From Erysipelotrichaceae bacterium (GTDB lineage: Bacteria > Bacillota_I > Bacilli_A > Erysipelotrichales > Erysipelotrichaceae): a stretch of DNA of 64,000 bases. The stretch covers positions 186,001 through 250,000 of the forward strand of contig JAFYHT010000071.1 of NCBI GenBank assembly GCA_017539025.1, given 5' to 3'. Under the pieces are notes generated by a model. It had not been told where the DNA came from, did not search any database, and saw only the letters and a program-made list of their open reading frames with translations. Both the position numbers and the translations under genes were made by a program. Shown in pieces: positions 17,595-22,786 of this stretch. The first letter of the stretch is position 1. The number at the start of each line of letters is the position of its first letter.

Positions 17595-17632
17595 CAGATA
17601 TTTTGTAACAAAAACGAGATATCTGTTTTTTT
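17595..17632 (+). terminator. Terminator after tadA
   Basis: CAGATAT/ATATCTG outer stem with an inner TTTTGT/ACAAAA stem, then seven T residues. Confidence 0.75.
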
Positions 17633-17666
17633 ATTCTGCCAACACCAATTTGATGATCGTATGAGT

Positions 17667-17672
17667 TATAAT
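17667..17672 (+). promoter_or_regulatory. -10 box of dnaX
   Basis: Perfect TATAAT 6 nt before the dnaX ATG at 17679; the transcription start would be at or very close to the A of ATG. No good -35 hexamer is present at 16-18 nt. Confidence 0.45.
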
Positions 17673-17678
17673 AGAGGT

Positions 17679-19340
17679 ATGGCATACCAGGTATTATACA
17701 GAACATACAGACCGGCAAAGTTTTCGGAAGTCGTCGGACAGGACTATATCGTCAAGACACTGACCAACGCGATCAGAAACAACAAGATCGCTCATGCGTA
17801 TCTTTTTGCAGGACCTAGAGGTACCGGCAAGACTTCGATCGCGAAACTTTTTGCCAAGGCGATCAACTGTCAGGATTTCAAAGAAGAAGCGTGTGACAGC
17901 TGCGCAAACTGTAAGGCATACCTGGAAGGAAACCACCCGGACATCATTGAACTCGATGCCGCCAGCAACAACGGCGTTGACGACATCAGGCAGATCATTG
18001 AGCAGGTACCTTATGCTCCGATGCTGGGAAAATATAAAGTTTATATCATCGATGAAGTACACATGCTGACGACGCAGGCATTCAATGCGCTGTTAAAAAC
18101 ATTGGAAGAGCCACCGGCCCATGCCATTTTTATCCTGGCCACGACTGATCCGCAAAAGGTCATACCGACTGTCCTTTCAAGATGTCAGAGATACAACTTC
18201 TCCAAGATTAATCCTTATGAGATCAGAAAGAGAACGATGGAGATCCTGCAGAAAGAAGGGATCCCTTACGAAGAAAAGGCTGTTGAAGAGATCGCCAGGA
18301 TGGCAGAAGGCGGAATGAGAGATGCCTTGTCTTTACTGGAACAGTGTCTGTCATACAACCCGGATGCATTGAATCTGGAGGATGTCGAACATATCTTTGG
18401 CCTGACATCTACACCGGAAGAAGTCGACCTCTATCTCAGAGTCCACGACCAGAAGGTCAGTGATGTCATTGAAAAACTCAGAGCGATGTATATCAAAGGC
18501 AGCGATACCAAGCGTCTTGCCGTCGATCTGCTGGAGATCGTAAAAGATGCGCTGGTCTATTCCGATCAGGGCAAAGAAAGACTGTTGAATAAATTAACGG
18601 CGATGGAAGCTCAAAGTATTCTCAACCGCATCGATATCAATTCTTTGTTCAATGACGCAAAGAACCTGGAAGACTTAATTACCCGGGAAAAGCAGAATCA
18701 GAACTTCCTGACCTATCTCGAACTCTGTCTGATCAAGATGGCTGAGTATCAGAGCAAGCCGGATAAGAAGGTACCGGTAAAGCAGAAGGAAGAAAAGGTT
18801 GAAACAAAGGAAGAAGAAAAAGAAGAAGTCAAAGCCGAACCGGTCGTTGAAGAAGTGAAGGAGGTACCGGAGATCACGGTCGTTGATCCGGATATGGATT
18901 TCCTGCTGGCAATATTATTGAATGCCAACAAAGACCTCAAGATCTCAGACCAGATCATCTACAACAAGCTGGATCTCTATGCTTATGAACCGGAAAAGAG
19001 AAAGTTCTATCAGCTGCTGATCGGCACCGAACTGTTTGCTTCCAACAAAGACGCGATCATCATCTGCGGCAACAGGACCCAGGCTGATAATATCAACACC
19101 AGATCGATCAACGAAGAACTTTACTGTTTCATCAATAAAGAGTTTGGTATCGATAAGATGGTCTATGCCATCGATCAGGTCAGAAAGAACGAACTGATCA
19201 ACATGTACAAGAAGACACCTGTCGACAGGAGGAACAAACCTGTCTACGTGGAAAAATACAAGATAGAAGAAAAAAGAGAAGCGACACCGGAAGAGAAACT
19301 GAAAGATCTCTTTGGTGACGTATTGAAAGTAGAGGAATGA
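17679..19340 (+). CDS. dnaX: DNA polymerase III subunits gamma/tau
   Basis: Clamp-loader ATPase, 553 residues. Conserved start MAYQVLYRTYRPAKF, Walker A GPRGTGKTS (45-53), zinc-binding cysteines C64, C72, C75, C78, Walker B IIDEVHML (about 120), sensor LSRCQRYNF. A charged E/K/V-rich linker (about 365-400) leads to a tau-type C-terminal domain that would bind polymerase. The ATG at 17661 is six codons upstream but precedes the -10 box, so 17679 is chosen; AGAGG abuts the ATG too closely to act as a normal Shine-Dalgarno. First gene of the dnaX-ebfC-recR operon. Confidence 0.95.
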   Translation: MAYQVLYRTYRPAKFSEVVGQDYIVKTLTNAIRNNKIAHAYLFAGPRGTGKTSIAKLFAKAINCQDFKEEACDSCANCKAYLEGNHPDIIELDAASNNGVDDIRQIIEQVPYAPMLGKYKVYIIDEVHMLTTQAFNALLKTLEEPPAHAIFILATTDPQKVIPTVLSRCQRYNFSKINPYEIRKRTMEILQKEGIPYEEKAVEEIARMAEGGMRDALSLLEQCLSYNPDALNLEDVEHIFGLTSTPEEVDLYLRVHDQKVSDVIEKLRAMYIKGSDTKRLAVDLLEIVKDALVYSDQGKERLLNKLTAMEAQSILNRIDINSLFNDAKNLEDLITREKQNQNFLTYLELCLIKMAEYQSKPDKKVPVKQKEEKVETKEEEKEEVKAEPVVEEVKEVPEITVVDPDMDFLLAILLNANKDLKISDQIIYNKLDLYAYEPEKRKFYQLLIGTELFASNKDAIIICGNRTQADNINTRSINEELYCFINKEFGIDKMVYAIDQVRKNELINMYKKTPVDRRNKPVYVEKYKIEEKREATPEEKLKDLFGDVLKVEE

Positions 19341-19341
19341 A

Positions 19342-19644
19342 ATGGATATCAATAAACTGATGCAGCAGGCCCAGGCCATGCAGAAACAGCTGGAAAAAGC
19401 GACAGAACAGATCAATGCGATGGAGTTTGAAGGAAGCGCATCAAACGGTCTGGTGAAAGTGGTCGTTAACGGCGAAAACAAAGTCCTGTCGATCTCGATC
19501 GACCCCGAGATCCTCAATCCGGATGACAAAGAGATGATCGAAGATCTGGTCATGATCGCAGTCAATGATGCGATCGGAAAAGCAGAAGAGACGAAGAAAG
19601 AAAGATTTGGTTCTATGGCCGGTGCTATGGGACTTCCATTCTAA
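19342..19644 (+). CDS. ebfC: YbaB/EbfC nucleoid-associated protein
   Basis: A 100-residue DNA-binding protein of the YbaB/EbfC family. The N-terminal helix MDINKLMQQAQAMQKQLEKATE and the beta-strand segment GLVKVVVNGENKVLSISIDPEI are diagnostic. The family forms tweezer-like dimers that bind DNA in the nucleoid; its precise role is not fixed. It starts 1 nt after dnaX ends and is followed by recR after 5 nt. Confidence 0.93.
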   Translation: MDINKLMQQAQAMQKQLEKATEQINAMEFEGSASNGLVKVVVNGENKVLSISIDPEILNPDDKEMIEDLVMIAVNDAIGKAEETKKERFGSMAGAMGLPF

Positions 19645-19649
19645 TCAAA

Positions 19650-20246
19650 ATGTATCCTGAGAAATTTGAAGAACTGATCACACTTTTTGAAAAGCTGCCG
19701 GGTGTCGGAAACAAGACTGCTCAGCGCTATGCTTTTGTATTGCTGGAAAAAGAAAAGGAACAGCTTCAAAAAGCAGTCGACGTCATCAACGGGGTCTCTG
19801 AGATCAAAAAATGCCGCATCTGCGGTTTTCTGAGTGATGACGACGAATGTGTCTTCTGCAAGGAAGCAAGCAGAGATCGTTCTTCAATCATGGTCGTTGC
19901 CTATCCGCAGGATGTCGTAGCGATCGAAAAGACCGGTTCCTATCTGGGAATGTATCACGTGCTTGGCGGATTGATCTCCTCCTCAAAAGGGATCTATCCG
20001 GAAGATATCAATATTGAAAAACTTTTAAACAGGATCGATGAGAATGTTTCAGAAGTGATCATCGCATTATCGCCAACGATGGATGGCGAAATGACGGCAC
20101 TCTATCTGAACAAGATCCTGAAAGAAAAAGGCGTTCTGGTAACAAGACTTGCCCACGGTCTTCCGATGGGTTCTTCACTTGATTACGCAGACGACCTGAC
20201 CCTGATCAAGGCTTTGGATAATCGCAGAAAGATCGAAAGTGACTAG
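19650..20246 (+). CDS. recR: Recombination mediator RecR
   Basis: A 198-residue ring-forming repair protein that acts with RecF and RecO to load RecA. It has the N-terminal helix-hairpin-helix (KLPGVGNKTAQRYAF, 15-29), the zinc finger C55-x2-C58 ... C67-x2-C70 (CRICGF..CVFC), and a TOPRIM domain (VVAYPQDVVAIEKTGSY..MDGEMTALY). The last 8 nt overlap the GTG of the next gene, which couples their translation. Confidence 0.96.
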   Translation: MYPEKFEELITLFEKLPGVGNKTAQRYAFVLLEKEKEQLQKAVDVINGVSEIKKCRICGFLSDDDECVFCKEASRDRSSIMVVAYPQDVVAIEKTGSYLGMYHVLGGLISSSKGIYPEDINIEKLLNRIDENVSEVIIALSPTMDGEMTALYLNKILKEKGVLVTRLAHGLPMGSSLDYADDLTLIKALDNRRKIESD

Positions 20247-21384
20247 ATTATTAACCGTATATGACAGCGTAGATCCTTTAAACAACGTCATCAGCGCACT
20301 GACTATAAAAGCTGAGAAAGTTTTCTTTATCTATCATCATCACGTATCCGAATACATCTTTGAAAACATCAGAGCAGTATTAGGAAAATATTACGGGATC
20401 AAGGCAGAATTCATCAGGCTCGTTGATGACGATATTCAGATCAGCGAGATCCTTGATAAAAACAAGAAGATCGTCGTTGATGTCGGCGGCGCAACCTATC
20501 TGTCTTTGCTGCTGTTTGAAATGGTCAGGAACAGAGACAACCAGATCATCTACTACGACGACGATGAAAACTGCATCAAGGATTATCGAACACATACAGT
20601 CATCAACGCAGAAGTGTTCAAGCTTCAGATCGAAGACGTACTGACCTTAAGAGGCGGCGAGATCAAGGAACACATGCATCACGTCGTCACAGACAAGGAA
20701 ACAAAAAAGGCACTGGTTACCCTTGTTGAAAACAACATCGAAAACTACAGCTCCTTTATCCGCTATATCACCAAGATCAACTCGATCCTCAACAACAGAG
20801 AATATCTCGGTTCCAATACCTATCAGCTGAAAAGTTCAGACATTCAGAGTTTTGTAACTGATAACGAATTTGACAGGAGTAAAGAGCTCTTTGAGATCGA
20901 CGAAGAAAACAGACTGACATTTAAAACAGGGAAGCTGAGAGAGATGGTTTCCATCTCCGGTGCCTTCCTGGAAAACTATCTTTATATCAAGCTGAAAGAA
21001 TCCGGCTTGTTTGATGACATCAAGATGAGTACGGTGATCGATTTCTCTGATGACAAATACAGCTATCCGGTCAGATGTGAGATCGATTGTCTGATCATCA
21101 AAAACAACAGACTGCTGTTTGTTTCATGTAAATCAACAAAGGCAGATGCCACAACGCTTAACGAGATCTATGTTCACAACTCGCGTTTCGGCAACGCCCT
21201 GTCTTTACCGGTACTCTGTGTCTGTGAGGAACTGGACCGCAAGTACCCAAGTACTTATGCCAAGGGAGAAGAACTGGGGATCTATATCGTAGACCGTTCT
21301 TCGTTCTTAAAAGGAAATGTAGCTGAAGTGTTCGCGTCGATCTTGGACGGAACATATGAATATGATGATGTAACAAAGATATAG
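20239..21384 (+). CDS. CARF-like / PD-(D/E)XK nuclease-like protein (DUF1887 / Card1-like)
   Basis: A 381-residue two-part protein. The N-terminal half (1-125) looks like a Rossmann-type CARF sensor: strand-helix repeats with LLTVYDSVDPLNNV and a mid-domain VVDVGGATYLSLL loop, where Card1-type proteins have a conserved TGGTK-like nucleotide-binding loop. The C-terminal half carries GAFLENYLYIKL (conserved Glu of the first nuclease helix) and EIDCLIIKNNRLLFVSCKST: D283 and K298 fit the D...xK catalytic core, but the position usually Glu or Gln is Ser296. Family assignment is from recall of these motifs. Card1/Can2 nucleases answer cyclic oligoadenylate from type III CRISPR systems; no CRISPR gene is visible here. 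The GTG start overlaps recR. Confidence 0.55.
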   Translation: MTRLLTVYDSVDPLNNVISALTIKAEKVFFIYHHHVSEYIFENIRAVLGKYYGIKAEFIRLVDDDIQISEILDKNKKIVVDVGGATYLSLLLFEMVRNRDNQIIYYDDDENCIKDYRTHTVINAEVFKLQIEDVLTLRGGEIKEHMHHVVTDKETKKALVTLVENNIENYSSFIRYITKINSILNNREYLGSNTYQLKSSDIQSFVTDNEFDRSKELFEIDEENRLTFKTGKLREMVSISGAFLENYLYIKLKESGLFDDIKMSTVIDFSDDKYSYPVRCEIDCLIIKNNRLLFVSCKSTKADATTLNEIYVHNSRFGNALSLPVLCVCEELDRKYPSTYAKGEELGIYIVDRSSFLKGNVAEVFASILDGTYEYDDVTKI

Positions 21385-21396
21385 TGAGGTCACGAT

Positions 21397-22266
21397 ATGT
21401 CAGCCATAGCTTACATTACCGATTCCAAAATGTTGGAGCTGCATCGTCTGAACAACCATCGGACGATCAATTTCTGGCGTCCTTCCAGCAACATCAACTT
21501 TACCGAGTTTGGTGAAGGTGATCTTCTTTTCTTCCTGTCCAAAGACAAGGAACATCGCAAAGGAAGAGAAAAGGGAATCGTCGGTTTTGGCAGGATGGTT
21601 AGCTTTTCTGTGACCACGGTCAAAATGATGTGGGAAAGATTTGGTATCTACAACGGATACAGGGACCTCAGCGAATTCAAGGAAGCGATATTGAAAGTAT
21701 CAAAAGATAAAAAGCTTCCAAGCAGGATCTCCGGTTTCTATCTGGAAGATGTGACCTTCTTCCAGCCGGTATATCTGAGTGAGTGTGGAATGAAGATCTC
21801 ATCCAATGTGGAATCCTATATCTATCTCAAACCGGAAGAAGTTGTCATCAAACTTTTAGATCTGGCGAAGGAATCCAAAGATCTCTGGACCGACCTCAAC
21901 AACAACGAGATCATCGACAGAGAAAAACTTCTCTATGTGCTTGATGCATCACACAAGAAGATCGGCGATATCCCAAGTAACGAAAAGGGATACAAACGCG
22001 CAACAAGGAATCTCAAGAAATACAAAGAAGAACATGAAGGTTATGAGTTCATCAGAGAATCCAGAAACGAGCTATATAAACTTGGAAGAAACAGTCTGGA
22101 CATCGTGTTCTATCACGATAAGGAGATCGACGAAAGGATCCTGATCGGGCAGGCCCAGCTGTACCGCTATCAGCTGTCTTCATACTATGGAAAAGATGTT
22201 GCGGTACGCTTCTTGAGCAGCGACGAAGACGAACAGTTAAACTACTACATGAACGCTCTGTTATAA
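21397..22266 (+). CDS. EVE/PUA-like domain protein, unknown C-terminal domain
   Basis: A 289-residue protein. The first half has the pattern INFWRPS...FTEFGEGDLLFFLSKDK...GIVGFGRMV, resembling the EVE/PUA-like domain found at the N-terminus of HNH and other restriction-type proteins, where it is thought to read modified bases. The second half (about 190-289: ESRNELYKLGRNSLDIVFYHDKEIDERILIGQAQLYRYQL) is not recognised; no HNH motif is seen. GAGGT lies just upstream. It follows the CARF-like gene by 12 nt, so the two are probably co-expressed. Family call is by motif only. Confidence 0.5.
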   Translation: MSAIAYITDSKMLELHRLNNHRTINFWRPSSNINFTEFGEGDLLFFLSKDKEHRKGREKGIVGFGRMVSFSVTTVKMMWERFGIYNGYRDLSEFKEAILKVSKDKKLPSRISGFYLEDVTFFQPVYLSECGMKISSNVESYIYLKPEEVVIKLLDLAKESKDLWTDLNNNEIIDREKLLYVLDASHKKIGDIPSNEKGYKRATRNLKKYKEEHEGYEFIRESRNELYKLGRNSLDIVFYHDKEIDERILIGQAQLYRYQLSSYYGKDVAVRFLSSDEDEQLNYYMNALL

Positions 22267-22553: not shown

Positions 22554-22786
22554 AAATACTAAGAAACGGAACATAGCTGAAGAAAAGTATCATAGAAAGA
22601 ACGGGATGATGGAAACCGATTATATGGACTTCAGTGAAATTCACCGTCAAGTAGAACTTTGAATCACAGTAGGAGTTTCCGGTTATCACCGTTAAAAGAT
22701 GAGGTCATGATAGTGACTGAAGAGGCTATGTATATAGCGAATTAAGGTGGTAACACGGCAAAGTCGTCCTTAGGGAGGACTTTTTT
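22554..22786 (+). promoter_or_regulatory. T-box leader, apparent Ile specifier
   Basis: A leader of about 230 nt. The T-box AAGGTGGTAACACGG is at 22744-22758 and a terminator (stem around AAGTC..TCC/GGAGGACTT with T run, about 22760-22786) follows. The specifier setting CAGTGAA-ATT-CACCG at 22632-22646 aligns with the serS leader's GGTGAA-TCC-GCC, giving ATT (isoleucine) at 22639-22641. Uncharged tRNA-Ile would then raise expression of the permease. Confidence 0.75.

What the first reader, a model, noticed from the sequence alone, without database searches (positions are those of the whole stretch)
20239..22266. CARF-like/nuclease-like gene and EVE-like gene coupled to recR with no CRISPR locus
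The GTG of the first gene overlaps recR by 8 nt and the second gene follows 12 nt later. Gene 1 shows a Rossmann-type N-terminal half with a GGAT loop and a C-terminal PD-(D/E)XK-like core (GAFLENY, EID..SCK), recalling Card1/Can2 and the DUF1887 family, whose known members are switched on by cyclic oligoadenylate. Gene 2 starts with an EVE/PUA-like domain (INFWRPS..GDLLFF), a module often used to sense modified bases. Coupling to a DNA-repair mediator rather than a defence island could mean a repair- or DNA-stress-linked nucleotide-signalling unit, or an orphan defence pair. The nuclease's catalytic Glu position is Ser, so activity is not certain.
Basis: partly seen in the sequence, partly recalled or inferred. 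Interest (0 to 1): 0.78.

Follow-up and report, generated by a model that had tools for sequence, protein, structure and literature searches.

The report
CRISPR-free CARF nuclease beside EVE-like gene
A family of gut bacteria carries, as an inherited part of its DNA-replication/repair gene block, a nuclease built like the signal-activated enzymes of CRISPR immunity but with a rearranged active site and no CRISPR system to switch it on, next to an unnamed protein shaped like readers of modified bases.

Summary
Gene 1 (20239-21384) is a full-length CARF + PD-(D/E)XK protein: AlphaFold pLDDT 90.9; best structural matches VC1899 Z 30.3, Can2 Z 27.6, Card1 Z 24.6. Gene 2 (21397-22266) starts with a PUA-superfamily ASCH/EVE/YTH-like barrel (ZmASCH Z 13.7) and matches no curated family. 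The pair is not a strain oddity: gene 1 is in 30 of 36 genomes of the genus, evolves with recR, and is under strong purifying selection (dN/dS 0.06-0.13). No Cas10 above cut-off and no RAMP protein occurs in any of the 36 genomes. The 'missing' catalytic Glu is replaced by Ser in all 39 orthologues, together with an invariant Glu on the next helix. Across 65 relatives 64 are Ser+Glu and the one ExK protein lacks that Glu. This is the relocated-Glu layout (PD-XXK-E) known from Cfr10I/NgoMIV, so the nuclease is probably active. recR is not the functional partner: gene 1 tracks gene 2. Gene 2 is family-wide, survives loss of gene 1, and fhs can separate the pair from recR. The activating ligand and the role (endogenous stress or fixed anti-phage arrest) remain inferred.

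The parts
17661..19340 (+). dnaX, first gene of the putative transcription unit
   Evidence: order kept in relatives
19342..19644 (+). ybaB/ebfC family gene
19650..20246 (+). recR (198 aa), overlaps gene 1 by 8 nt
20239..21384 (+). gene 1: CARF + PD-(D/E)XK nuclease, 381 aa, GTG start
   Evidence: PADLOC E=1.8e-25; AF2 pLDDT 90.9; VC1899 1xmx Z 30.3, Can2 7bdv Z 27.6, Card1 6xl1 Z 24.6
20239..20613 (+). CARF domain, about residues 1-125
   Evidence: mean pairwise identity 39%
20494..20496 (+). Thr86 codon: Can2 Lys99-equivalent position, Lys/Arg in 31 of 32 rows, Thr only in this genome
20950..21354 (+). nuclease domain, about residues 238-372; most conserved part (52% mean identity)
21079..21087 (+). 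E281-x-D283 (Can2 Glu276/Asp278 equivalents), invariant
   Evidence: PMC7969007
21124..21132 (+). S296-C-K298 in place of E-x-K; Ser and Lys invariant
21163..21165 (+). E309, invariant Glu at K+11 on the following helix; proposed relocated catalytic carboxylate
   Evidence: (helix 304-317)
21397..22266 (+). gene 2: two-domain protein, 289 aa, no curated family
   Evidence: AF2 pLDDT 89.3
21397..21885 (+). gene 2 N-terminal ASCH/EVE/YTH (PUA-superfamily) domain, residues 1-163, 62% mean identity
   Evidence: ZmASCH 5guq Z 13.7, McrB-N 6n0s Z 9.8, EVE 2eve Z 9.0
21886..22263 (+). gene 2 C-terminal alpha/beta domain, residues 164-289, 32% mean identity, unidentified
22766..22780 (+). terminator-like hairpin with T run: possible end of the unit
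   Evidence: consensus match; total count not above chance
17595..17625 (+). terminator-like hairpin just upstream of dnaX: possible start boundary
   Evidence: consensus match

Best explanation
Gene 1 is a chromosomally fixed, CRISPR-independent CARF-regulated nuclease. Its dimeric CARF domain most likely binds a phosphate-bearing nucleotide signal, and this opens a PD-(D/E)XK domain that cuts DNA and/or RNA using Glu281, Asp283, Lys298 and a Glu relocated to the next helix (Glu309), i.e. a PD-XXK-E active site. Gene 2 is an older, family-wide nucleic-acid-binding protein (ASCH/EVE-like barrel plus an unidentified alpha/beta domain) next to which the nuclease was installed once and then inherited with the dnaX-recR block. 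I infer that gene 2 supplies or gates nucleic-acid recognition. I infer that the trigger is a nucleotide the cell itself makes or releases under nucleic-acid stress, phage infection included, rather than Cas10-made cA4, and that the outcome is temporary growth arrest. Shown here: fold, gene order, absence of type III machinery, selection, and the Ser/Glu swap. Inferred: catalysis, ligand, partnership of the two proteins, outcome.
For: Fold. Catalytic set E245, E281, D283, K298 invariant in 65 of 65 relatives; S296+E309 in 64, and the single ExK relative lacks the Glu. Other ExK proteins (VC1899, 8bao, two class relatives) also lack it, while a Clostridia DUF1887 protein has Ser plus a helix Glu. 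Relocated-Glu PD-XXK-E sites are established in Cfr10I, NgoMIV and others (PMC551604, PMC6344858). Nuclease domain more conserved than CARF domain (52% vs 39%); dN/dS 0.06-0.13. Pair in 37 of 38 named loci; gene 1 distances follow recR and dnaX (Mantel 0.80 and 0.84); one origin of the operon position on the tree. No RAMP and no Cas10 palm over cut-off in 36 genomes; SMODS CD-NTase in 2 of 36, Cas1 in 2 of 36. Gene 2 fold. CARF pocket: Tyr105 invariant, Lys/Arg86 in 31 of 32, Asp/Glu9 in 31 of 32 against Can2 contacts (PMC7969007).
Against: No biochemistry. Two of the four conserved cA4-contact positions are changed; VC1899, which also lacks them, showed only weak activity not regulated by cA4 (PMC7969007). 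The window's own protein has Thr86 where relatives have Lys/Arg. Gene 1 is absent from several genomes of the genus in which gene 2 stayed, and distant relatives occur without an adjacent gene 2, so a physical partnership is unproven.
Confidence: 0.5

Rival explanations
1. Dedicated anti-phage abortive-infection effector: a phage-triggered cyclic nucleotide from an unidentified synthase activates gene 1, and gene 2 recognises modified phage nucleic acid.
For: All characterised Can2/Card1 effectors are defence enzymes (PMC7969007); EVE-like domains are common in restriction systems (PMC11090510); gene 1 can be lost.
Against: Near-universal in the genus, inherited with housekeeping genes with no sign of transfer; none in viral contigs, gene 2 not in phages, one distant plasmid relative; no synthase found.
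Confidence: 0.3
2. RecR-linked repair nuclease: gene 1 acts with RecFOR or replication-fork repair.
For: 8-nt overlap with recR and usual position in dnaX-recR.
Against: fhs lies between recR and gene 1 in several lineages while gene 2 stays adjacent; relatives in the same family sit near other genes such as glmS or ribosomal protein genes; recR exists without gene 1.
Confidence: 0.1
3. Catalytically dead CARF protein: Ser296 marks loss of nuclease activity and the protein is only a ligand-binding regulator.
For: ExK Glu missing in all 39 orthologues; VC1899 itself is nearly inactive in vitro (PMC7969007).
Against: Glu281, Asp283, Lys298, Glu245 and Glu309 invariant across 64 highly divergent proteins, and the nuclease domain is the best conserved part.
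Confidence: 0.15
4. Gene 1 and gene 2 are functionally unrelated neighbours kept together by slow genome rearrangement.
For: Gene 2 occurs without gene 1 in most other genera and in genomes of the genus that lack gene 1; distant gene 1 relatives lack an adjacent gene 2.
Against: Adjacency kept in 37 of 38 loci although fhs lies between recR and gene 1 in some; spacing of about 1-27 nt in nearly all.
Confidence: 0.3

Closest known systems
VC1899 (Vibrio cholerae, DUF1887 founder, PDB 1XMX)
   Same: Best structural match over 348 residues (Z 30.3); orphan CARF-nuclease with no type III system (PMC7969007); acidic residue at the Ser19-equivalent position.
   Different: VC1899 keeps ExK with no Glu at the K+11-equivalent position; lacks the Tyr (Val115) that is invariant here; no EVE-like partner reported in the papers read.
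Can2 / Card1 (type III CRISPR ancillary nucleases)
   Same: Same two-domain fold (Z 27.6 and 24.6); E-x-D pair and catalytic Lys conserved; Lys99- and Tyr118-equivalents kept in relatives.
   Different: No Cas10/RAMP in the genus; ExK changed to SxK plus helix Glu; Ser19 and Thr42 positions changed (Asp/Glu, His).
Cfr10I/NgoMIV-type restriction enzymes (PD-XXK-E active site)
   Same: Carboxylate moved from the ExK position to a later position in the sequence, with Lys retained (PMC551604, PMC6344858).
   Different: Different domain architecture, no CARF domain; spacing K+11 here; catalysis shown there, only predicted here.
ZmASCH, EVE and YTH domain proteins
   Same: Gene 2 residues 1-163 share the fold (Z 13.7 for ZmASCH, 9.0 for 2eve); ZmASCH binds and weakly cleaves ssRNA (PMC5615036).
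   Different: No sequence-profile match to Pfam or NCBIfam; extra C-terminal domain; base or RNA binding untested.
CoCoNuT type IV restriction systems
   Same: CARF-nuclease proteins can be encoded with EVE/YTH-like domain proteins (PMC11090510).
   Different: No McrB-type GTPase or McrC gene noticed beside the pair; here only two genes inside a housekeeping block.

Membership tests
CARF + PD-(D/E)XK proteins (DUF1887/VC1899 fold family) | N-terminal CARF Rossmann domain | tested here: met
   residues 1-118 match many CARF structures; full-length matches to VC1899, Can2, Cdn1, Card1
CARF + PD-(D/E)XK proteins (DUF1887/VC1899 fold family) | C-terminal PD-(D/E)XK fold with acidic pair and Lys | tested here: met
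   PADLOC CARF4--CARF_PDDEXK 1.8e-25; Pfam PF09002 25.1 bits against a 26.4 cut-off, 26.6
Can2/Card1 type III ancillary nucleases | ExK half-motif | tested here: not met
   Ser in 39 of 39 orthologues
Can2/Card1 type III ancillary nucleases | Association with Cas10/type III CRISPR | tested here: not met
   RAMP 0 of 36; Cas10 palm over cut-off 0 of 36
Can2/Card1 type III ancillary nucleases | cA4-contact residues Ser19, Thr42, Lys99, Tyr118 | tested here: inconclusive
   Asp/Glu9, mostly His33, Lys/Arg86 (Thr in the window), Tyr105: two of four kept in relatives
Can2/Card1 type III ancillary nucleases | Nuclease activity switched on by cA4 | not testable with these tools
   needs purified protein
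PD-XXK-E (relocated Glu) nucleases | Non-acidic residue in the ExK position with a conserved acidic residue on a following element | tested here: met
   64 of 65 relatives Ser296 + Glu309
PD-XXK-E (relocated Glu) nucleases | Relocated carboxylate occupies the metal site | not tested
EVE/ASCH/YTH (PUA-superfamily) domains, gene 2 | Characteristic beta-barrel fold | tested here: met
   ZmASCH Z 13.7 over 138 residues, rmsd 2.6
EVE/ASCH/YTH (PUA-superfamily) domains, gene 2 | Match to a curated sequence profile | tested here: inconclusive
   no EVE, ASCH or YTH Pfam match for gene 2 or 14 relatives and no NCBIfam match for gene 2; profile searches miss remote members
EVE/ASCH/YTH (PUA-superfamily) domains, gene 2 | Binding of modified base or RNA | not testable with these tools
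   needs assay
CBASS | CD-NTase in the system | tested here: not met
   no SMODS in the own genome, 2 of 36 in the genus; other CD-NTase models not searched

The most novel reading that the evidence does not exclude
Erysipelotrichaceae run an endogenous, CRISPR-free nucleotide-signalling pathway in which a relocated-Glu CARF nuclease answers a host-made second messenger and an EVE/ASCH-type protein senses or directs it to modified or damaged nucleic acid: a core cellular stress circuit rather than a mobile defence system.
Probability: 0.25. Interest if true: 0.85.

Novelty: new variant of a known kind. Interest (0 to 1): 0.6.

Why it matters
CARF nucleases are studied almost only as CRISPR effectors. 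Orphan members such as VC1899 have no known ligand or role. Here is a large, vertically inherited orphan lineage with intact selection on its active site, a consistent active-site variant, and a constant partner gene, present in genomes in which no source of cyclic oligoadenylate was found. It makes two open questions directly testable: what orphan CARF domains sense, and whether CARF nucleases also serve ordinary cell physiology. Gene 2 also defines a family-wide protein family without a curated name.

Tried and rejected
Type III CRISPR-linked effector: rejected by absence of Cas10 and RAMP. Dead nuclease from E-to-S: weakened by the Ser/Glu pairing. Specific RecR partner: weakened by fhs insertion, gene 2 tracking and solo relatives. 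Mobile or phage origin: no relative in viral contigs, gene 2 absent from phages, one distant plasmid relative only. Gene 2 C-terminal domain as a copy of the gene 1 nuclease: no profile similarity; the structural search covered only residues 1-180 well, so its fold is open. PF09002 hits in other families of the class proved to be AAA+/DUF4143-like ATPases with an ExK domain, not CARF proteins (identified by eye). PHROGs, Pfam and NCBIfam gave nothing useful for gene 2.

Full report
Observation. The two ORFs, the 8-nt overlap with recR, the 12-nt spacer and all quoted motifs are exactly as described. The order is dnaX-ybaB-recR-gene1-gene2. Terminator-like hairpins stand before dnaX (17595-17625) and after the small gene that follows gene 2 (22766-22780), so the genes may form one unit, although the number of such matches in the region is no higher than in shuffles.

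Gene 1. Sequence profiles put it with CARF4--CARF_PDDEXK proteins (PADLOC 1.8e-25) and just under the Pfam Card1_endonuc cut-off (25.1 vs 26.4 bits). AlphaFold2 on 32 rows gave pLDDT 90.9. VIA-align matched the whole chain to VC1899 (Z 30.3, 348 residues, rmsd 3.2), Can2 (Z 27.6), Cdn1 (27.2) and Card1 (24.6). The fold assignment is therefore secure.

Active site. In Can2, Glu276/Asp278 are the tested catalytic residues and the other half-motif is ExK (PMC7969007). In gene 1 the equivalents Glu281 and Asp283 and the Lys (298) are invariant, but the ExK Glu is Ser296 in every orthologue. Instead an invariant Glu309 lies at K+11, on helix 304-317 that follows the strand. Tallying 65 relatives outside the window (38 recR/fhs-linked loci and 27 hits in further loci, a few of which repeat one gene), 64 have Ser+Glu; the single ExK protein (L116) has no Glu there. 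VC1899 and 8bao (ExK) have Lys there in the profile alignment; two further ExK relatives in the class also lack Glu; a Peptoclostridium DUF1887 protein has Ser plus a helix Glu one residue further on. Exchange of the carboxylate to a later position with the Lys retained is an established active-site variant, PD-XXK-E, in Cfr10I, NgoMIV and others (PMC551604; PMC6344858). That gene 1 is catalytic this way is an inference; the side-chain geometry was not measured.

Selection. The nuclease domain is the most conserved part (mean pairwise identity 52%, CARF 39%, middle 32%). dN/dS between close pairs is 0.06-0.13 for gene 1, close to recR (dS is often above 1, so these values are rough). This argues for a working enzyme.

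CARF pocket. Aligning to Can2 and using the cA4 contacts in PMC7969007, the Tyr118-equivalent Tyr105 is invariant and the Lys99-equivalent is Lys/Arg in 31 of 32 rows (Thr86 in the window's own protein only), whereas Ser19 is Asp/Glu and Thr42 is mostly His. VC1899, an orphan that is not regulated by cA4, also has Asp at the Ser19 position. A phosphate-bearing ligand is plausible; classical cA4 binding is uncertain.

No signalling source. In the 36 genomes of the genus no RAMP protein and no Cas10 palm over the curated cut-off was found (seven genomes have sub-threshold matches, probably GGDEF domains, not inspected). SMODS CD-NTases occur in 2 and Cas1 in 2, neither in the window's genome. 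Genomes are mostly MAGs, so absence in one is weak; absence in all is strong.

Distribution. Gene 1 is in 30 of 36 genomes of the genus, and 38 named loci are Erysipelotrichaceae/Solobacterium or unclassified Firmicutes records, many from rumen or gut. Gene 2 is next door in 37 of 38; in the exception gene 2 is on another contig. Pairwise distances of gene 1 track recR (Mantel Spearman 0.80) and dnaX (0.84), gene 2 likewise (0.87, 0.86). The operon position needs one change on the gene 1 tree and 38 of the linked rows form a clade with 99% SH-aLRT (quick tree, some deep branches unsure).

recR is not the partner. In seven named loci about 1.6 kb separates recR from gene 1; in the four I read it holds fhs (formate-tetrahydrofolate ligase, identified by eye), while gene 2 stays adjacent. 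Gene 2 is present in 31 of 41 sampled genomes of the family; in the phylum sample only one weak hit, to its C-terminal part, lies outside the family. Where gene 1 is absent, gene 2 follows recR or fhs, often before mnmG. Within the genus, three genomes lacking gene 1 still have recR-gene 2 (L137, L138, L140) and one has neither beside recR (L139). More distant Ser/Glu CARF nucleases in other genera of the family stand alone among housekeeping genes, for example near glmS or near nusG-rplK-rplA (neighbours named by eye). Thus a CARF nuclease was most likely placed beside an older family gene once, and has been kept by descent with some losses.

Gene 2. No curated family matches it. AlphaFold2 pLDDT 89.3. 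Residues 1-163 are an ASCH/EVE/YTH-type barrel (ZmASCH Z 13.7; McrB N-domain 9.8; 2eve 9.0). ZmASCH binds nucleic acids and weakly cleaves single-stranded RNA (PMC5615036). The C-terminal 125 residues form an alpha/beta domain of unknown kin, with no similarity to the gene 1 nuclease.

Mechanism. I commit to a CRISPR-independent, ligand-gated nuclease using a PD-XXK-E site, with gene 2 as a nucleic-acid-binding partner (about 0.5). A dedicated anti-phage role (0.3) is the main rival; core inheritance, lack of mobility and lack of a known synthase speak against it but do not exclude it. The rivals overlap, so their confidences need not sum to one.

Filing. It belongs to the CARF + PD-(D/E)XK fold family (VC1899/DUF1887-like). 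It is not filed as a Can2/Card1 type III effector, because ExK and type III association were tested and not met. I found no paper describing this operon or this active-site variant in CARF nucleases, but the main CARF classification paper was not held.

Noticed in passing
L116:1548-5768 (G497): 1407-aa protein with a Ser/Thr-kinase-like N-terminal part and a C-terminal Card1-type ExK nuclease; the only ExK protein among the 65 relatives tallied.
   Followed up: no
window 20494-20496: Thr86 in gene 1 replaces a Lys/Arg kept in all other recR-linked orthologues at the CARF phosphate-contact position; may alter ligand binding in this one species.
   Followed up: partly
L118:3899-5065 (G031): A genome of the same genus carries a second, distant Ser/Glu CARF nuclease away from recR.
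   Followed up: no
L154:2749-3906 (Peptoclostridium acidaminophilum, 809-kb replicon): DUF1887 protein of a Clostridia member also has SxK with a helix Glu and no CRISPR gene adjacent, so the variant extends beyond Erysipelotrichaceae.
   Followed up: partly
L104, L106, L111, L112, L122: Solo Ser/Glu CARF nucleases in another genus of the family lie among core genes (cysS-rlmB, nusG-rplK-rplA, glmS neighbourhoods).
   Followed up: partly
L040, L045, L053: Gene 2 directly precedes mnmG (tRNA modification) in several genera, a context that might hint at a tRNA-related role of its EVE/ASCH-like domain.
   Followed up: no
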